A stretch of 64,000 bases of DNA from Saprolegnia diclina VS20 (taxonomy: Eukaryota; Oomycota; Saprolegniomycetes; Saprolegniales; Saprolegniaceae): NCBI RefSeq assembly GCF_000281045.1, contig NW_008246120.1, positions 175,835 through 239,834 of the forward strand. Reading direction: 5' to 3'. The notes beneath the pieces were generated by a model, which saw only the letters and a program-made list of their open reading frames with translations, did no database searches and was not told where the DNA came from. This document shows positions 41,601 through 56,900 of the stretch, one piece after another. Numbering within the stretch: the stretch's first letter is position 1; every line of letters starts with the position of its first letter. A program made the translations under genes and the position numbers.

Positions 41601-43434
41601 GCTGCCGGAGCTGCAGCAGGGACCCGGGCACACGCTCAAGATGATTGCTGCTCACGTCCAACACGGTGAGCGTCGCGAGCTTGCCAATGTCCGGTGGCAG
41701 GCCCGCGAGTCGGTTGAGTTTCAGGTCCAGTCTACGCAAATTGGCTTCACAAATGATCCCAAAACTCCGTCGTACTCTTGCAAGAGCGGAAAATGAACAA
41801 AGCCGTCCGGAAGGCTCGTGATGCAATTGGCCGGCGCCAAGAGATGCGTAAGGTTTGCAAGCTGACACAAGGCGTCAGGCAGCGTCCAGAGCCGATTGTG
41901 TCCGACATTGAGCACTTGAAGCGCATGCATGAGGCCCTACATCCTCGCTCGCAGCCGTGGTATCGCTTTTGTGTAGCGTACGAGTGAGACGGGCAGCTCG
42001 TCAATACTGTTGTTGGCGACGTTGAGACGCTTGATGTGCATGAAGCGGTCGTAGCGGTCGAGCTCGGGCGGAACACTAGTGTGCTATAAAGCTTATCAGT
42101 GCGTTTATTAGTATATCGCACCAGGTAAAGGTTTCGTGGGTGCTGTGGTTGCGATACGACGTTCGCGCACCAGGTAGAATCTCCCAGCCGCCTGGAAAGC
42201 TCATCGACGGTGCGTCGGCGGATGGTTCGATGGATTGCTGGTTTGGTGACGGGTGCAGACGTAGCTTTGGTATCGCGTTCGGGTCGGGCCCGAGGACGTC
42301 AGGGCGCTGTCGTGTCACTGTTTTTGTCTTGATGTTGTAGTAGATAACTGCACCACTTGCTGGGTCCGTTGATTCGGACCAATCGGCGACCGATGACGTT
42401 GCTACGGGGTCAGAAGCAGGACCATTGAAACGCCGAGGCGCCGCTGGCATGGGCAGCAGCGCGAGCGACAGCAGCTCGTTTTTCGCACACGACAAGGTTC
42501 GAAGCAAGTGCAGTTCGTAGAGGGCGTTGGGCAGATGCACCAAAAGATTGTGGCTCAAGTCCAAGGTCACGAGATGGACGAGCCGGTGCAAGAAAGGCGC
42601 AGTGCGGAGTCGGTTCCGCGGGACCGAGAGATGCTGCAGCGAGGTTGGGAGCGTCTCGGGCAGCCCGCCAAGTTTGTTGCAGTCGAGAAGCAGTGTATGA
42701 AGCCGGGTCCAGCGGCCGATGTCGTGCGAGAGCGTGATCAAGCTATTTTCGCTAGCGTTGAGCCACTCGCAGCTCGGAAATGCAGCACAAAAGGCACTCG
42801 AGAGCTCACGAAACTCGTTGCGGCTGATGTTGATCTCCTTGATGAAGCGCGCCATTTGCAAGAGAAAGGTCGAAAATACCGTGTCCGGGACCAGGTCGAT
42901 GCGCAGCGCCTTGAGGTCGAGCATGCCGGAGCCGTAGCTTCGACACATGGCGGTTTGAATGGTGCGCGTCTTTTCTTGGGCTTGAAAGTCGGCGTCGTTC
43001 TCGTGCTTGAGCATGTCATCGGCGTGGTGTCGTCGCCGTTCGATGAGCACGGCCATCGTGTTGAGCGTCGGTGGCCCGGTCGTCGCAAGCCTACTCGAGC
43101 AACGACTGAGCCTCGAACGAGATTTCGTTGTGTAGTACCGGGTTTCGAGAAACTTGGTCTTGTACTGCGACGCCTTTTGCTCGCGAAGGTAGCGCTCGTT
43201 GTTGCTCAGCACCTTGGCCTCGTACTTGGTGCTGATCGCATGGATCGTCGCGCGCGCCTGCTCGTAGCTCCCACTCGCCGCATACTCTTTGTGGATGTTG
43301 AGCACCGGCGCCTTGAGCGCGACGCGCTGCCTCGCCTTGGACTCTTCGTCTGGTGGCGTGTACAGGATGTTGTCGCCGCAGAGCTCATCAAACGGGAACG
43401 CATTTGGCGTCGTCGTCGGGTCGGTCGGGTCCAT
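38674..43434 (-). CDS. Large leucine-rich-repeat protein with two WW domains
   Basis: Exons (minus): 43139-43434, 42122-43090, 41982-42075, 41776-41936, 41492-41731, 41379-41442, 41195-41326, 40653-41149, 39566-40607, 39260-39457, 39033-39203, 38674-38988; 1,392 residues. After a coiled N-terminus come LRRs (FLLQMARFIKEINISRNEF, LVTLDLSHNLLVHLPNALY), two WW domains (WSESTDPASGAVIYYN near residue 332 and GGWEILPGARTSYRNHSTHE near 397), then many more LRRs of the SHOC2-like LxxLPxxxxxLxxL type. A 300-residue conserved region follows (DHFVPRTRNLLTTN, FMLNPTALYDDWEDVPSI, CGCEDMLRKGTTHEPCY), then a basic coiled coil and an acidic tail. Similar LRR scaffolds occur in flagellate protists. The specific function is unknown. 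Two introns (41150-41194 and 43091-43138) are multiples of three without stops, so retained forms are possible. Confidence 0.78.
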
Positions 43435-46301: not shown

Positions 46302-47762
46302 CTACTCGGAGTGGCGCTTGCCAAAGCCGTAGCTGGGCGACGAGCCGCCAGCACTCTTGACCTCCATGTGAACAAGCTGCTCAATGGACGCGGGCGGCGC
46401 CGTGAGGTCCGAGTACCGGTACTCGTCCTCGAGCATCTTGTCGGACGGCATTGGGCTAGCAATCGTGCGCGACCGACGGCGCAGTGGCGGCGGAAGGAGC
46501 TTGATGCGCTCTTCGTAGTCTTCCGAGATGACTTGCATCTTGCGCGCACCTTCAAGGTTCAACGGCGTGTTCGAGTCAAAGGCCGAGAGCTGCCCGATCG
46601 CGAGCGACTTGTAGATGGTGCGCAGGTGAAAGTAGTACTTGGCGTACGACGCGGCCGAGACGCGGACGTTGTACTCGACGGCCGCCAGGTACAGTAGCTC
46701 CAGCGTGTTGATGCGCCGGAGTGGAAACGTGACGTGGCAGATCTTGGAAAAGTCGGCATTGCACATACTGAGGTCGTCCCAGACCTTGCTGGCCATGACC
46801 ATGGACGAGAAGAGGATCGCGTGCCAGTTGCCGGCGTGGATCTGCAGCCCTTTGCCCATCGTCGCTTGCAAGAGGCGCTCGACGTAGATGAGCCCCATGA
46901 TGATGCACTCCGACTCCATTTGCGCCTTGGTGTGCACTTGGTGCATGAACGACACAATGTCGTCGATCGACGGCAGCGGCAGCTTCTTGAGCGACGACGC
47001 CTGCAGCGCTTCCATCGAGAGAAACCCGTGGAAGCGCGGGTCCGCGGGCAGCGGCGTCGCATGGGCCTCGCGAATGTGGCCGCGAATGACATGGGCGACG
47101 CAGAGCATCGTGCTCTTGACGTCCGGCTTGTTCATCGTGCCCATGCGCACGTAGATCGAGTTGGTGCTGTTCGAGCGCATGCGCAGTGGCTGCGGCGGCA
47201 CCACCGCGGTAAACGCCTCGTCGCGGTACGCGCTGCCGTCCGTGAACGACGCCCGCTCGTGCAGCACCGGCGTCCCGCGCTCGCGGTTCTCTGGAATCGG
47301 CGACGGCGGCAGCTTGGACGCGAGCGAGCCATAGACTGGCACGTCTTGGTTCAGGTCTTCTTTTGCCGACAGCGTTCGAAAGAGCCGTGGCGGGCCCGTC
47401 GCGAGTTTCGTGGCAGGCTTGCGGCTGTGCACGGGCGGCGTATCGTTCGTGTCTTCCTTGGCCGAGAGCGTGCGGAAGAGGCGCGGCGGCCCGGCCGCGA
47501 TGACAGCCGCGACGTCGTCACGGCTCGCGACGGGCTCGGGCGAGAGCATGCCCGCGCGCAGCTTGTTCTTGATGTTGTTCTCCATGGTCCGGAAAAAGTG
47601 GGACGCCGCCTCCTTCTCGCGCCGGACGATGCAGGGCGGCTTCTTCCACGTCGTCTCGCGCGTAACCGGGTGGTAGTAGTACGAGCGGCCGGAGCGCGGG
47701 CATTGCGCGACCTTCCACTCGACGTCGGCGGCCATCGTCGTCGTCGTCGGTCCCTCGCCCAT
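46302..47762 (-). CDS. WW-domain protein with cyclin Y-like box
   Basis: A single exon encodes 486 residues. A WW domain at about residues 13-42 (VEWKVAQCPRSGRSYYYHPV, TRETTWKKP) is followed by a linker carrying the motif GPPRLFRTLSAKED twice, 35 residues apart; the motif contains a basic Ser/Thr phosphosite-like core. A cyclin box of the cyclin Y/Pho80-like group occupies about residues 215-400: DDIVSFMHQVHTKAQMESEC, IIMGLIYVERLLQ, WHAILFSSMVMASKVWDD and ELLYLAAVEYNVRVSA. Cyclin Y partners CDK14/16 at membranes. The WW domain would add binding to Pro-rich ligands. This gene has no intron, unlike most neighbours, and its promoter has four CCAAT boxes. Confidence 0.88.
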   Translation of the reverse strand: MGEGPTTTTMAADVEWKVAQCPRSGRSYYYHPVTRETTWKKPPCIVRREKEAASHFFRTMENNIKNKLRAGMLSPEPVASRDDVAAVIAAGPPRLFRTLSAKEDTNDTPPVHSRKPATKLATGPPRLFRTLSAKEDLNQDVPVYGSLASKLPPSPIPENRERGTPVLHERASFTDGSAYRDEAFTAVVPPQPLRMRSNSTNSIYVRMGTMNKPDVKSTMLCVAHVIRGHIREAHATPLPADPRFHGFLSMEALQASSLKKLPLPSIDDIVSFMHQVHTKAQMESECIIMGLIYVERLLQATMGKGLQIHAGNWHAILFSSMVMASKVWDDLSMCNADFSKICHVTFPLRRINTLELLYLAAVEYNVRVSAASYAKYYFHLRTIYKSLAIGQLSAFDSNTPLNLEGARKMQVISEDYEERIKLLPPPLRRRSRTIASPMPSDKMLEDEYRYSDLTAPPASIEQLVHMEVKSAGGSSPSYGFGKRHSE

Positions 47763-49475: not shown

Positions 49476-52472
49476 TTACACGACCAGCGTCAGCGGCTCG
49501 GGCGTCGCCAGGATCGCGTGCGCTTCGATTACAATGTCGGCGAGTGCGTCGACATCCGCGACAACGTGCTGGATGCCAAAGCCGAGGCGGAGCGACGTCT
49601 TCTTGCGCACGTCGCAGTGAAACACGAGGCGGGACGTTGAAGTCGCGGGGCGGCGCGCGGGCTGCGTGAGGTACTCTTGGATCGCAGCCGCTTGCGAATG
49701 CTGCAGCACAAACGCGTTGGAGATCGTCGCCGGGTCCTGCGTCGCGCGCTGCGTGGTGCTGGCCGAGAAGACCTTGCCAAGGCGCGCAAAGAACCGATCT
49801 TGGAGTCGCAAAACATACGCATGCCGCAGCTGAATCGTCCAGTTGTGCGACGCGTAAAAGGCTTGGACGTCGTTCCACTGGCGCAGCGCGTAGTGAAACC
49901 CGGGGGTGCCCCCCTGGAACTTGAGGTCGGGCGTGTAGCCGACGACCTTGGTCGGCACATGCGTCGGCGAGAGCACCGAGAGGTCGGCGATCCAGCCCGT
50001 GTTGGCCGGCGTCCATGACGTCGTGCTCGGAAATGCGATGAAGCCGAGCCCGGGCCCCGCAGTCGCGTGCTTGATGCCGCTGCCAATGACAAAGAGGTGG
50101 GGAAACTGCGACGGCAGCGCGAGCGGGACGTTCTCGAGCGTCTGCGCCACGTCCAGAATGAACATGCTGCTCGTCGGAAGCGCCGTTGCCACCGACGCAA
50201 TGCTCGCATCTGACAGCCGAAATTGAAAGTTGGAGTACACAACGCTGGCGTACACCACATCGTAGATGCCATTGGCCGCCGCGGCCGCCAGACGCGCGCC
50301 GTACGTCTCGAACGGCGTCAGCGCAATCGTCTCGACCGTGTGATGCGGCAGCGCGTCCATCTGCCGGGAAAACGACAAAAACTCAGCGTCCGAGGTCAGC
50401 ACCCGCAGCGCCTTGCCATGCGGGTGGCAGCTCAGTAGACGCAAGAGGAACTCGTGGCAGTTGGATCCAAAGTTGATGTGGTACGCTGCCGAGGCGACAC
50501 CGAGCGCCTGCTTGATGTACGCGGCCGCCGTTGGCACGTCGTGCGCAAAGACGTGGTCCCACGACTCGTTGAGCGTCGACGCGAGTAGCCGATGTGTTCC
50601 GACGACGCTATCAAAGGACACGTCGGGTGCGAGACCCATGCCGTACGTGGAAAAGTGGAGCGCTTGCGGGTCCTGGAGCGCAAGCGACCGGGCAAAGTAC
50701 GGTCGGAACGGGGACGTCGTCTTGACACCGAGCTCGGCGACGGGTTTTGCCGCCACCTCAACCGCCATGGCCGAGCGCGGGCACATCAGCTGCTGCCACT
50801 GGACACGCTGCTTGAGCTCGCGATGGCGCTGCCGCGCGCCTTCCGAGAGCGTGCGGATGATGCGGCCCTTGAACGACTTGTCGACGGCCAGCTGGGCCGC
50901 GTCGAGCGAACTCGAGAGCTGCTCTTTCGCGTGCTCGCACGAGAGGTACCGGTTGGCGTCCTTCCAGCCGCGCTCAAGCATCTTGACCGTGAGCTCTTGG
51001 GTCCCGGCGGCGCCCGCGCCCAGCACCATGATCGCGAGGTGCTGGTGGCCAAAGTAGAAGCGTCGAACTGCGTTCTCAAGCATCTGGATGGCCTGGACGA
51101 TCTGGATGCACTGGGCGCCCGGCGACACCCGCGACGCAAACATGGTTTGAATCGTTGCGACCAGGTCATGCTTCTCGGTTTCGTCCTCGGGCTTCTCAGA
51201 CCGGACTTGGCTCAGCACATGGAGCATGTCGACAAGGCTCGTGGGGTCGACAGTCGACCGCTGGGCGACGCCAACGAGGCATGTTGGTGCGAGCGGCATG
51301 AGGTGTGCGATGCGGCGTCCGAGCTGGCGCAAGCGCACGCTCTGGCCCCCGCTCGCGCCATGCAAGTGGAGCTTGAGCGTCAAGTAGTCGGCGGCGTCCA
51401 TCTCGCTCAAGATCGAGATGTGGTCAATGAGATACTCCCAGATCTGGCACGCAAAGCGGTACCGGCGCGCGACGCGCGTCAGCACGGCCGCGTTCACCGC
51501 CGTCGACGCGTTTAGGTCCAAGTGGTCGAGGTCGAATTGCGCAACGTCGAGCTGGCGCTCCATGACGCAGCACCACGCCTCCGTGATCTGGTGCACAGTC
51601 GCGAAAAAGTGATCTTCGACGAAATCTTGGTCGTCCTCGTCTTGGGTGCAGTGCGCACGCGTGTGCGTCGGCAGTACGAGCTTGTCGTACGGCAGATGCA
51701 GGCCGTCGGACGCGCCGAGGCCAGGGCCAAAGGGCAGGCCCGAAAAGTGGCAGCTCAAGAGCCCCGAGACGCGCTGGAGGAGCTCGTGCGGCGGGAAGGA
51801 TGCGTTTGGCGCGCTGTCGCGCCACCACCAGTGACCGTCGAGAGCCAAGCTCTCCTTGCTGCCGTCGCGCGTGAGGTCGTACATGGCCGCGATCTGCGCC
51901 TTGTCGTTGACGGCCGCGAGGTCCATGTCCATCACCGTGCGCATCATGAGCAGCTGCGCGCTGAGGTTGCGCATGACGGCGTCGACGCGCGACGCGTGGT
52001 TGACGTACGGCCGGTGCCGGCGAAAGCGCGGCGCCGTCGACTCGACGGTAGCGCCGACGTTGACGTCCATAAACTCGAGCAAGAGCCGCAGTGTAATCTC
52101 AAACGAACTGAGCGCCGGCGCGACGCGGTAGAGCGGACCCGGTGCCGGGCTCAGCGCGACCGGCTCCGAGAGAGGCGCCGAGACCGACTCGATCGGCTCG
52201 AACGGCATCGTCTGCGTCGGCGAGACGTACGACCAGAGACCCCAGACCTTCTCGAGCTCGTGGAGGCGAATGTAGGACGCGTACGTGTTGCGGTGCAGGT
52301 TGCCAATGTACGTGGCGTAGGCTCCGATGGTCGCTGACGTCGAGGCGCGGCCGATGCTGGCACCGTCGGCGGGCTTGTTGGTCGATTCAAACGCGCACGA
52401 GCCGGCGGCTGCGTCGTCGGCGTAGGCGCACGACGGCGTAGAGGAAGCGGGCGTGGTATCGGATACGGTCAT
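49476..52472 (-). CDS. Fusion of a tryptophan-dioxygenase-superfamily (TDO/PrnB-like) domain and a kynureninase-like PLP enzyme
   Basis: One uninterrupted exon of 998 residues. The N-terminal 500 residues follow the heme-dioxygenase superfamily: YATYIGNLHRNTYASYIRLH; DHFFATVHQITEAWCCVMER (residues 287-306), equivalent to the helix of TDO reading FIITHQAYELWFKQIL; ASGGQSVRLRQL (373-384), equivalent to ASGFQSxQFRxLE; and FYFGHQHLAIMVLGAGAAGT (472-491), which aligns with the proximal heme His and Gly-rich loop. From about residue 600 comes a fold-type I PLP enzyme of the kynureninase/class V group: NFGSNCHEFLLRLL, VLTSDAEFLSFSRQ, the cofactor Asp in FILDVAQTLENVPL, and the Schiff-base Lys in VIGSGIKHATAGPG (Lys near 801). 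The likely chemistry is oxidation of an indole or aromatic amine followed by PLP cleavage; the substrate is unknown. The frame extends 36 codons upstream without ATG. The lack of introns may point to horizontal transfer. Confidence 0.82.
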   Translation of the reverse strand: MTVSDTTPASSTPSCAYADDAAAGSCAFESTNKPADGASIGRASTSATIGAYATYIGNLHRNTYASYIRLHELEKVWGLWSYVSPTQTMPFEPIESVSAPLSEPVALSPAPGPLYRVAPALSSFEITLRLLLEFMDVNVGATVESTAPRFRRHRPYVNHASRVDAVMRNLSAQLLMMRTVMDMDLAAVNDKAQIAAMYDLTRDGSKESLALDGHWWWRDSAPNASFPPHELLQRVSGLLSCHFSGLPFGPGLGASDGLHLPYDKLVLPTHTRAHCTQDEDDQDFVEDHFFATVHQITEAWCCVMERQLDVAQFDLDHLDLNASTAVNAAVLTRVARRYRFACQIWEYLIDHISILSEMDAADYLTLKLHLHGASGGQSVRLRQLGRRIAHLMPLAPTCLVGVAQRSTVDPTSLVDMLHVLSQVRSEKPEDETEKHDLVATIQTMFASRVSPGAQCIQIVQAIQMLENAVRRFYFGHQHLAIMVLGAGAAGTQELTVKMLERGWKDANRYLSCEHAKEQLSSSLDAAQLAVDKSFKGRIIRTLSEGARQRHRELKQRVQWQQLMCPRSAMAVEVAAKPVAELGVKTTSPFRPYFARSLALQDPQALHFSTYGMGLAPDVSFDSVVGTHRLLASTLNESWDHVFAHDVPTAAAYIKQALGVASAAYHINFGSNCHEFLLRLLSCHPHGKALRVLTSDAEFLSFSRQMDALPHHTVETIALTPFETYGARLAAAAANGIYDVVYASVVYSNFQFRLSDASIASVATALPTSSMFILDVAQTLENVPLALPSQFPHLFVIGSGIKHATAGPGLGFIAFPSTTSWTPANTGWIADLSVLSPTHVPTKVVGYTPDLKFQGGTPGFHYALRQWNDVQAFYASHNWTIQLRHAYVLRLQDRFFARLGKVFSASTTQRATQDPATISNAFVLQHSQAAAIQEYLTQPARRPATSTSRLVFHCDVRKKTSLRLGFGIQHVVADVDALADIVIEAHAILATPEPLTLVV

Positions 52473-53900
52473 TGGGCTGGTTGGTGTGTTGCTGACAAGG
52501 TAAATGGAGGAATGAGCCGTTGAACGTGCTTGTAGAGGCCGCCTTGTCAGAACATGGAGGGTATTCTCGCCTTTTGACAATATTTACCGTCGTCTTGATG
52601 TTACATAATGTTGCAAAGTCGTTGTTCGCGCATTTGATTGGTCCATTAAATGTCCGGTGTCGAACCACACCCAGCTGTTTGAAACGGGTGTCGGTTACAG
52701 TGCAAAACTCTAAATCTTAGCTTGGTATTTGTATGCAAAGAGATGTGCGGTAATGAATTATTGTTGAAGCTGGTATATATTGTCAAAACGCGCTTACCAT
52801 GGTCGCTCCGACACCCACACGCGACGCATCGTGTAGTACTTGGGGAGTTCTGATCCGGTTCATTGGCAGGCGTTCGTTGTCCGCGCAATAGGAGGCATGG
52901 GTACCTGACGTGCGACTCCTTTTCCGCAGCTTCAACCAGAGTACTACTCACGACGTGTCCTTTGATCGCCTTTCTGGCCGACAGACGCGGGGTACGGAAG
53001 CTGGAGATTACCCCGAGACTCAGCGTGCTCACTTTCAATTGAGTAGAAACGACCGACAACGGCATGCGCGAGAACGTTGAATATAGCAAAAAACCTTGGC
53101 TTCTCGAGAACACTCAGAAGTTGGTTTTAGGGACGTCGTTTCTTTGCCGAGTCGTCAAGTTGGCTGAAGTTTCCTTCGTCATCAACCGACCGTCGCGCTT
53201 TCTTGCACCCAGTTTGCTGCAGAATCGCCGTCAAGTTCAACCCACTAGGCAAGATGTGCTTGCTGTTAAATATTGTCATAAAACCGCCAATCTGTAGATC
53301 CAATTTCAAAATGGGATGCGCCCGCTTCTGCTTGCACATCGAATCGACATGTCGCGCATTTATACTACCCACAGGTCTTGCAATTGCATAGTACGGCCTA
53401 GCACGTTCAAAGCCACTCGATTATGCACTGGTACATATTGTCAAAACGCCAGAGGCGGCGCATGAAGGTTCAGGATCAATCGACGCGTGGATGGGCTTTT
53501 GCGGCGCCTCGTATAATGATACTATTAGTACACCAGCACGTTGCAATAGGAGTTCCAGCGCACGCTGCTCCAAGGAATGGAAATACTAAAAAGTCAAATC
53601 TAGGCGGTGCTAGGAAAAAATGTTAAATATTGTCACAACTCGACAGATAGCGGTCGGTGCTGACGCAATACAGCTACATCTGTACAGGCGTCGGGAGCGG
53701 AGAGCTACTACTACGTAATCTCGTGCAGTGTAGCATGAGGTCCAAGGGCTCGAAAAACCGTCTCGTAATAAGTTAAGGCTCATCGCCCAAGGGACCAACC
53801 CTTTGGCGAATGCCAAGGCAATCCCCAAGTGATTTATCTGAACCATAAAAAGGCCAAACATTTCGTGTGGACTCATACATATTCTTATGCATCATCAACT
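52473..53900. other. AT-richer gap with repeated ATATTGTCA elements
   Basis: About 1.4 kb without a supported gene. The 9-mer ATATTGTCA occurs at 52777, 53270, 53436 and 53628 on the plus strand and once inverted at 52575-52583. The copies at 52777 and 53436 share a longer match (CTGGTAYATATTGTCAAAACGC by eye, split here as CTGGTA, Y, ATATTGTCAAAACGC). The 14-mer CTTGGTATTTGTAT is at about 52721. It could be a decayed mobile element or a regulatory region. Confidence 0.5.
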
Positions 53901-56900
53901 TTACAACTCAAAACTAGTAATGTTATCGACGGCGACGACCTTGGGTACGACGGGCTCGGGCCTCTTGACCTGGAACTCCTCAAAGTCGTCGTCGTCCTCG
54001 TCGTCGTCCTCGTCGTCGTCAAACGTGCCAATGTGCCCGTGTACCTCCTTGGGCGTCGACGGACCCTTGGGCGTCAGCGGCTCCTTGGGCGTCAGCGGCT
54101 CCTTGGGCGTCAGCGGTCCCGTGGGCGTCAGCGGTCCCGTGGGTGTTGAAGGACCCGTGGGCGTGGACGGCTCGGTAGGCGTAGTCGGCGGCGGCGTGGA
54201 CGGCTCGGGCGGGTCTTCCTCATAGTGGTCTTCTTCTTCCTCGAGGATCATAGCGTGTTCGTTGCCGGCTTGAGCGTCGCGGAGGTCCTTGAGCGTTGCT
54301 TGAAACTCTTGCGATTGGTCGCCGAGGTACGAGAAGCGGTCAAAGTGCTTGCCCGACGTGTTGGTGGGCGACGACGGCATCGCGACGGGCGAGTCGGGCA
54401 TGAGCTCTTCGCGCGCCTCGCGCGTCTTGGCAATCGCGCGACTACAGACAACTTGTCCCCACTGCTTCTCTCGACAGTCCTACCTCAGACAGCTCTCGGG
54501 CGTCACGTCTTCTTGGCGATGCGGCGGCCGCGGCACATCGACGGTCTGCGCCATGAGGCCCGTCCAGTCAACGTCGGCAAAGAATTCGTGGCGCTTGATT
54601 TCTTCAGCGCCGAGCGGCCCCGACCCAAGCCGCGTGCCCGCATCCTTGTCGAGCAAGCGCGACACCTAGTCCATTGCCGTCAAGACGCGCAACTTGTAGA
54701 GCGTCGTACGAGGTCCTTGGCGTCCGGCGTGAAGCGCTCGCTAAAGACGCACTCGTCGTTGAGGATCTTCTCAAAGAGCACGGCCGGGTTCTGGTGTCGG
54801 AACGGCGAGTCGCCTTGGATCATCTCGTACATGAGGATGCCAAAGGCCCACCAGTCGACGGCCGTGCCGTACGGCTCCTTGAGAATGATCTCGGGCGCGA
54901 GGTACTCGCACGTGCCCTAGGCCAAAGGCTCAGTTTTCCGAGAGCAACGCAAGTGCGTCGCACGACGAATGACGACGCGCGGCCCGTCTCCTTGTCGACT
55001 TCTTCCTTGGACAAGCCAAAGTCCGTGCACGCAACGTTGCCGTCGGCGGTGAGGACAATGTTTTCGAGCTTGAGATCGCGGTAGAGAATGTTGGACGCAT
55101 GCAGATGCGCAATCGCAAGCAAAATCTAGTTTCGGGTCAGCTCCAGAGTCCACAGTCCAGATTCGAGTGTGGTTGTGGGACACACCTCGGCGAGGTAAAA
55201 GCGCGCGCGTTTGATGCTAAAGCGGCCGCGGCGACGGAGCACTTGGCGCAGCGAGCCGCCGCTGTAGTAGTCCATGACCATGTACAGCTTGTCCTTGTTT
55301 TGGAACGCGTAGCGCAGCTGCACAATGTACGGGTGGTTGGCCTCTTGCAGGATGCGGCGCTCGGCCATTGTCTGCGTCACGAGGTCCTTGTTCATGACCC
55401 AGTCCTTCTTGAGCACCTTCATCGCGTAGAGCTTGCCGTCGTCGTGCTTGCCAACGTCCTTCTTTTGCACGAGGAGCACCGTGCCGCACGCACCCCGCCC
55501 AATCACGCTCACGAGCTCGAAGTCGTTGACCGACATCTTGCCGGGCATCGCAGAGTCCTCAAAGACCGACTCCTTCTCGCCAAGGCGGACCGCACGCGGC
55601 CGGCTCCACGAGATGAGCGACGGAAGGCACTTGCACGTGACGCAGAGCCGGACGCTGCCCTCGAGCTTGGTCGTCTCCATCGAGCTGCACTTCTCGCAGA
55701 CCGCGGATTGGCATGTCCGGCAGTGACGCCGCCACCGACGCATGTTGAACGGCTGCTTGCAGTTGTAGCACATCTTCTCCATGCCGCCCGAGACCGTCGA
55801 GATGCGGAAGCCGGCGTAGCGCGCCTTGAACGTCGAAAAGACCGAGTGCATGACCGACTGGAGCACTTCAATGTCCGAGAGCTCGTAGCCGGCCGAGAGG
55901 ACAATGCAGCCCGCGTCGTACTATCAAGGTGTCAATGTATCAGTGTCCCGCCGGTTGAAAAGGCGAGCCACGAACCTCTTTGGGCTTGAGCCGCGTGAGC
56001 TGGGGCTCGGCCGACGCAACGTACGAGACGGCCCACTGCGCAATCGTCTTGCGCAGCAGGTACGAGTCCTTGGCGTGCACGCAATGCGTCGACTGGATAA
56101 AGGCGATGCCACTCAAAAGCCGCTTCATCTCCTTGAGATGGTGCCGCATCGAGTCGACGAGGAGCCGGCCGCCGTCGCCGTACGCAATGACAAACACGTG
56201 GGAGGCCTGCGACGTGTCGACGTGATCGCGCCACGCCGAGATGAAGCGGTCGATGGCGCACTTCATCTATGCACAAGGCGACGGAGGATGAGGAAGATGC
56301 GATAGGTATGAGGAGATCGTACGACAGACGTGTTGGGCACGGGCGACTCTTTAAAGACGTCGTCGTAGACCATGATGCCAAAGAGGTCGTCGCGCGCGCG
56401 AATGAGGTACGGCAGCATGGACCCGAGACTGCCGTGGTGGATGCCACCGCCTAGATGGAGTGTTGGCTGAGCAATGGGGCGAGAGGCGGTATGCGACGCG
56501 TACCTTCCGAGCCCGAGCGCACACAAAGCTTGGAGCTCCAGATACCCGCGGGCGACCCGCCGCTGTCGCCGACAAACACGAGGAGGCGGTCGGCGTGCGA
56601 GACGGAACGCGACATGAAGAGGTTGCACTCGATCATCGTGTCCTCGCACGGGCTCTCGTCGCGGTAGAGATCGAGCATCTCCTCCATCTTGGCTTGCACG
56701 TTGACCTTGACCGATTCGACGAGGCCGCCCGGGGGTGGTGCTCGCGGCTCGGGTGGCTCGACGTAATTTGAGGACGCGACCAAGGTCGTGGGCTTCTCCG
56801 TTTTGGAGCCCGAGATGCGCTCGCCCGAGCCGCGCGAGCCGCGGTTGGGCATCGACGAGCCCGTCGGCGACAGCATGTTTTCCTCGTCGTCCTCGGCGAA

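What the first reader, a model, noticed from the sequence alone, without database searches (positions are those of the whole stretch)
49476..52472. Single polypeptide joining a tryptophan-dioxygenase-superfamily domain to a kynureninase-like PLP domain
Seen: one 998-codon intronless frame carries TDO/PrnB-type motifs (VHQITEAW, ASGGQSVRLRQL, FGHQHLAIMVLGAGAAGT) followed by a kynureninase/class V PLP motif set (VLTSDAEF, LDVAQTLENVPL, GSGIKHATAGPG). Known: TDO and kynureninase are steps 1 and 4 of tryptophan catabolism, with a formamidase and a monooxygenase between them; PrnB is a TDO-superfamily member of pyrrolnitrin synthesis. From memory, unverified: some bacteria encode a TDO-fold protein (DUF1864/PrnB family) beside a kynureninase-like gene. 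Inference: an oomycete fusion, possibly of two neighbouring bacterial genes, forming a two-step enzyme on an unknown indole or aryl substrate. The absence of introns among intron-rich neighbours fits transfer.
Basis: partly seen in the sequence, partly recalled or inferred. Interest (0 to 1): 0.85.

Follow-up and report, generated by a model that had tools for sequence, protein, structure and literature searches.

The report
Fused tryptophan-dioxygenase-like and kynureninase-like enzyme
In water moulds one protein joins a tryptophan-dioxygenase-like half to a distant kynureninase-like half, and bacterial relatives of the second half go together with tryptophan dioxygenase genes, so the two halves probably carry out linked steps in breaking down tryptophan or something like it.

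Summary
The 998-codon uninterrupted frame is real and conserved in Saprolegniales: six near-full-length relatives. Residues 260-527 model as the tryptophan-dioxygenase (TDO) fold and keep heme-ligand His, distal His and substrate Arg. Residues 585-990 model as a class V PLP fold, kynureninase first but tied with other class V enzymes. The C half's bacterial relatives (about 30% identity) form a kynureninase-like family that I found described nowhere: in 49 of 80 loci it follows a TDO gene, in 7 more it lies beside one. In an even draw of 398 Pseudomonadota all 20 carriers have TDO against 108 overall, 8 of the 20 side by side. Of 30 carrier genomes, 30 have TDO and 3 a canonical kynureninase over cut-off, a fourth split over two contigs. 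The oomycete C half lost the kynureninase Tyr and His, so its chemistry may differ. No second TDO was found in the assembly, but a canonical kynureninase was. Catalysis is untested.

The parts
49476..52472 (-). Open reading frame, 998 aa: TDO-superfamily domain fused to kynureninase-like PLP domain
51696..52325 (-). Helical N-terminal extension, residues 50-259, conserved in fusions and stand-alone paralogues, no Pfam match
51591..51593 (-). H294, aligned with distal His (H55 of X. campestris TDO; role and numbering recalled)
51327..51329 (-). R382, aligned with substrate-carboxylate Arg (R117 of TDO; role and numbering recalled)
51045..51047 (-). H476, aligned with the heme-ligand His (H240 of TDO; role and numbering recalled)
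50712..50882 (-). Tail of the N half and linker, residues 531-587; 562-582 low confidence in the model
49479..50711 (-). Kynureninase-like class V (fold type I) PLP domain, residues 588-998
50151..50153 (-). D774, PLP-ring Asp (D201 of P. fluorescens kynureninase)
50070..50072 (-). K801, predicted PLP Schiff-base Lys (K227 of kynureninase)
50073..50075 (-). I800, where kynureninases and the bacterial relatives have Tyr (Y226)
49992..49994 (-). W827, aligned with W256 of kynureninase (numbering recalled)
49587..49589 (-). R962, aligned with carboxylate-binding R375 of kynureninase (numbering recalled)

Best explanation
A two-domain enzyme of Saprolegniales that does linked steps in the breakdown of tryptophan or a close derivative. 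Shown by computation: the N half has the TDO fold and keeps the heme-ligand His, distal His and substrate Arg; the C half has the class V PLP fold with PLP-Lys, Asp and carboxylate Arg in place; bacterial cousins of the C half are genetically tied to TDO. Inferred: the N half opens the indole ring to N-formylkynurenine (or an analogue); the C half takes the alpha-amino acid product, directly or after deformylation, and cleaves its side chain as kynureninase does, giving alanine plus (formyl)anthranilate; fusion keeps the two in fixed ratio and close together. It is degradative or signalling rather than for NAD, because oomycetes are reported to make quinolinate from aspartate.
Confidence: 0.48

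Rival explanations
1. The C half has changed its chemistry: with Tyr226 and His204 gone it is another PLP lyase or hydrolase acting on a TDO-type product, so the protein makes a dedicated indole-derived metabolite rather than anthranilate.
For: 10 of 10 oomycete C halves differ from 98 of 98 bacterial rows at these sites; stem of 3.17 changes per column in the tree; a canonical kynureninase is present separately.
Against: PLP-Lys, Asp, Trp, Phe and carboxylate Arg are kept; kynureninase is still the first fold hit.
Confidence: 0.3
2. The N half is a heme- or ligand-binding regulatory or scaffold domain (as may be true of plant Hs1pro-1) rather than an oxygenase, and only the C half is an enzyme.
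For: PF07014 is the best Pfam family; P0012 and P0013 carry a degenerate N half without heme-pocket His on an intact C half.
Against: Heme-ligand His kept in 16 of 18 records, all three residues in 15 of 18; the TDO core is the best conserved part of the fusion across genera, 60-62% against 50-53% for the C half in P0005-P0007.
Confidence: 0.15
3. The C half is a cysteine desulfurase or selenocysteine lyase, as database names of P0003 and P0006 say.
For: Names; class V folds tie; seven of ten bacterial rows get weak desulfurase or selenocysteine-lyase NCBIfam scores.
Against: Those scores are 15-30 bits against cut-offs of 377-661; the Cys in the HCDVR stretch is Ser in P0012; the bacterial family goes with TDO.
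Confidence: 0.05
4. Annotation artefact: two genes read through as one frame.
For: Stand-alone N halves exist (P0008-P0011, P0035, P0036) and P0015 is a stand-alone C half.
Against: One uninterrupted frame here, and records of the same layout from four genera; the stand-alone records listed come from Aphanomyces and Achlya.
Confidence: 0.02

Closest known systems
Tryptophan 2,3-dioxygenase (KynA/TDO2; PF03301)
   Same: Fold, heme-ligand His, distal His, substrate Arg
   Different: 26.1 bits against the TIGR03036 equivalog cut-off of 390.7; about 210-residue helical extension; fused to a PLP domain
Plant Hs1pro-1 (PF07014)
   Same: N half passes the Hs1pro-1_C cut-off; stand-alone paralogues of 546-571 aa, though P0036 stays below the cut-off
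   Different: No Hs1pro-1 N-terminal model was listed; no plant sequence could be compared; fused PLP domain
Kynureninase (TIGR01814; 1qz9, 2hzp)
   Same: First fold hit; PLP Lys, Asp, Trp, Phe, carboxylate Arg in line
   Different: No TIGR01814 match at E up to 1; Tyr226, Tyr228 and His204 replaced
Bacterial TDO plus kynureninase-like gene pair described here
   Same: Two activities of the same kinds; C halves homologous (E 5.2e-54)
   Different: Two genes, often apart; partner is TDO itself; the bacterial PLP protein keeps the kynureninase Tyr and His
AntN/AntP of antimycin biosynthesis (TDO plus kynureninase)
   Same: A dedicated TDO and kynureninase encoded together, as told in PMC3869250 (passages)
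   Different: Separate genes in Streptomyces antibiotic clusters; no sequence comparison made here
PrnB and MarE (heme-dependent aromatic oxygenases)
   Different: PrnB ranks below TDO and MarE for this model; PrnB was not searched for in the bacterial loci

Membership tests
TDO / heme-dependent aromatic oxygenase superfamily | TDO-type helical fold | tested here: met
TDO / heme-dependent aromatic oxygenase superfamily | Heme-ligand His | tested here: met
   H476 aligned in the profile comparison; kept in 16 of 18 records, absent in P0012 and P0013
Tryptophan 2,3-dioxygenase (equivalog) | TIGR03036 score over 390.7 bits | tested here: not met
   26.1 bits; four of five bacterial partner TDOs also fail this strict cut-off
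Tryptophan 2,3-dioxygenase (equivalog) | Distal His and carboxylate Arg | tested here: met
   H294 and R382
Hs1pro-1 | PF07014 over gathering score | tested here: met
   38 bits, cut-off 29.3
Hs1pro-1 | Hs1pro-1 N-terminal domain | tested here: inconclusive
   Not listed at E up to 1; no plant sequences available for comparison
PrnB | Closer to PrnB than to TDO | tested here: inconclusive
Kynureninase | TIGR01814 score over 246.4 bits | tested here: not met
   No TIGR01814 match at E up to 1
Kynureninase | PLP Lys, ring Asp, carboxylate Arg | tested here: met
   K801, D774, R962 in 10 of 10 oomycete rows
Kynureninase | Active-site Tyr before the Lys (Y226) | tested here: not met
   Ile 8, Val 2 of 10; kept in 98 of 98 bacterial rows
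Kynureninase | Cleavage of kynurenine to anthranilate and alanine | not testable with these tools
   Needs an assay
Cysteine desulfurase / selenocysteine lyase | Catalytic Cys loop | tested here: inconclusive
   A Cys nearby is Ser in P0012; no structural check of the loop

The most novel reading that the evidence does not exclude
There is a second, so far undescribed kynureninase family in bacteria, coupled to TDO and present where canonical kynureninase and formamidase models mostly find nothing over cut-off, which acts straight on N-formylkynurenine; the Saprolegniales protein is the fused descendant or cousin of this two-step shortcut, giving an enzyme that goes from tryptophan to alanine and an N-formylanthranilate-type product without leaving one polypeptide.
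Probability: 0.18. Interest if true: 0.82.

Novelty: new variant of a known kind. Interest (0 to 1): 0.62.

Why it matters
It would give Saprolegniales, in a phylum reported to make quinolinate from aspartate, a candidate way of opening tryptophan, and it points to a bacterial kynureninase-like family that may complete the pathway in TDO-bearing bacteria in which the canonical kynureninase model finds nothing over cut-off. It also links the plant-named Hs1pro-1 Pfam family, whose function is unclear as far as I recall, to a TDO-like active site, which can be tested directly.

Tried and rejected
PF07014 in 398 Pseudomonadota genomes: 0 over cut-off, 20 weak; 18 of the 20 places coincide with a TDO gene listed, the other two (G085, G201) have a TDO whose place was not listed, so no bacterial Hs1pro-1-like donor was found. 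IDO and 3-hydroxyanthranilate dioxygenase in the own assembly: no match, but no control genome rang, so absence is not shown. Kynurenine formamidase TIGR03035: 0 of 30 genomes over cut-off, 13 of 30 with weaker matches; controls rang in 7 of 14 but none over cut-off, other formamidase families exist, and G023 and G025 at 158 and 142 bits may be real ones, so the 'no formamidase' idea is weak. Canonical kynureninase in the same 30: 3 over cut-off, 13 with some match at E 0.001, and G020 has one split over two contigs (168 and 88 bits), so four is the likelier count. Ten ORFs flanking the pair in seven loci: no formamidase; four matched no Pfam family, two of these (L050, L053) look SbnI/serine-kinase-like, two (L043, L081) stay without match and may be spurious frames. 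The A5 search scored at most four candidates per genome, so carriers may be missed. In L065 and L078 my ORF for the TDO runs through the PLP gene, so the exact place is unresolved. The first fold list could not test the N half because the C half filled it; done again with the N half alone. In one search one of four canonical kynureninase rows (L098) was read in the wrong frame; corrected; the residue statements use the other three. The T282 column of oomycete rows is probably off by one. Profile comparison of A1 with the single own kynureninase gave 3% probability, of A5 33%. PADLOC: no match. Literature: searches (10 of 34 papers listed in 86) showed no title or abstract start on this fusion or the bacterial pair; passages only were seen of PMC12633357, PMC11791213, PMC4217691, PMC3869250, PMC5023847 and PMC3681718 (the last two hold neither 'kynurenin' nor 'tryptophan').

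Full report
What is there. The minus-strand frame 49476-52472 encodes 998 aa without interruption. The window lies in a 54.15-Mb assembly of 169 contigs; its protein is 88% identical over its full length to SPRG_01493 of Saprolegnia parasitica, so this is a Saprolegnia or near relative. One search listed 14 proteins, the query included. P0002-P0007 have the same two-part layout, P0004 being a partial record and P0006 of unnamed origin; P0008-P0011 are N halves alone; P0012 and P0013 are a C half with a degenerate N half; P0014 holds parts of both. Searches added P0015, a C half alone, P0035 and P0036, N halves alone, and the shorter records P0016 and P0037. The named members belong to Saprolegnia, Achlya, Thraustotheca and Aphanomyces, all Saprolegniales (genus placement recalled; order). 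Only the 7,996 or 7,997 candidates sharing most words were scored in each search, so distant eukaryotic relatives may be missed.

The bacterial family. The search for related loci kept the best 80 of 545 confirmed relatives. In those 80, a TDO gene ends within 159 bases upstream on the same strand in 49, lies upstream on the other strand in 7, is not seen in 21, and the contig is cut in 3. In 13 the gap is zero; in L041 and L073 stop and start codons overlap by reading the DNA. Of 30 genomes that I picked from these loci, 30 have a TDO over cut-off, 3 a canonical kynureninase over cut-off and a fourth, G020, one split over two contigs, and 0 a TIGR03035 formamidase over cut-off (no control over cut-off). 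In 398 Pseudomonadota drawn evenly, 108 have TDO (E 1e-10) and 20 this PLP family (E 1e-20), and all 20 are among the 108 (hypergeometric p 1.2e-12; the centre genome G004 was one of the 20, without it 19 of 19; shared ancestry not corrected for). In 8 of the 20 the two genes lie within 400 bases of each other, in 12 they are apart: co-occurrence is complete in this draw, adjacency is not. By sequence the family's best solved relative is kynureninase 1qz9, E 3.9e-14, the next C-DES at 6.1e-05, but curated NCBIfam models do not claim it. I read it as a second bacterial kynureninase-like family working with TDO.

Origin. In a tree of 54 rows the ten oomycete C halves are one clade (100/99) on a stem of 3.17; the 40 bacteria group at 83/85; four canonical kynureninases are separate behind a root branch drawn as 4.1 on each side; the program warns that long branches meet. 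P0012, P0013 and P0015 lie inside the oomycete clade beside the Aphanomyces fusions, so the degenerate and stand-alone forms most likely come from a fusion that was already there. No donor is visible. Base composition and frame length fit the neighbourhood.

Function. The assembly has no second PF03301 match (control rang in 2 of 14), no IDO match (no control rang) and one canonical kynureninase (274.6 bits) that is closest to 1qz9 (445 bits). Published analysis says Oomycota appear to use the aspartate route to quinolinate (PMC4217691, passages), so this protein is not expected to serve NAD synthesis. The best reading is a tryptophan-opening dioxygenase joined to a PLP enzyme that takes the amino-acid product. 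Whether the C half still performs the kynureninase reaction is open, because the Tyr that in kynureninase stands before the PLP-Lys is gone; a changed reaction is the main rival. A precedent for TDO and kynureninase encoded together is AntN/AntP in antimycin clusters, where the passages seen take N-formylkynurenine to anthranilate by AntP without naming a formamidase (PMC3869250). No paper on the fusion turned up in ten searches (numbers under Tried and rejected).

Noticed in passing
46302-47762 (-): Uninterrupted 486-aa frame joining a WW domain to a cyclin domain (PF00397, PF08613).
   Followed up: no
42076-43434 (-): 452-aa frame with leucine-rich repeats and a WW match below cut-off.
   Followed up: no
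L083:1462-2745 (own assembly, contig C69): A separate canonical kynureninase in one frame, far closer to P. fluorescens kynureninase (445 bits) than to human (109 bits); a bacterial-type gene in an oomycete.
   Followed up: partly
P0012, P0013 (Aphanomyces stellatus, A. euteiches): Paralogues with an intact kynureninase-like half but an N half that has lost both heme-pocket His residues; P0012 seems to neighbour the intact stand-alone N half P0008 by locus tag.
   Followed up: partly
L010-L081 (bacterial loci): A kynureninase-like family tied to TDO in several bacterial phyla, with canonical kynureninase over cut-off in 3 of 30 genomes tested.
   Followed up: yes
L052, L058, L076: In three Chlorobiota-type loci no TDO is near; a frame containing MTKIIRDESTTSAYW follows the family member, and in L052 and L076 a cytochrome-b-looking frame lies upstream (identity guessed, no family search).
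   Followed up: no
L050:3441-4223, L053:9163-9945: Downstream of the TDO pair in an Acidimicrobiia and an Acidobacteria locus: a SbnI/serine-kinase-like protein far below the curated cut-off.
   Followed up: partly
53887-54225: Low-complexity repeats of GVSGPVGVSG type, on the other strand PSTPTGPLTPKEP.
   Followed up: no
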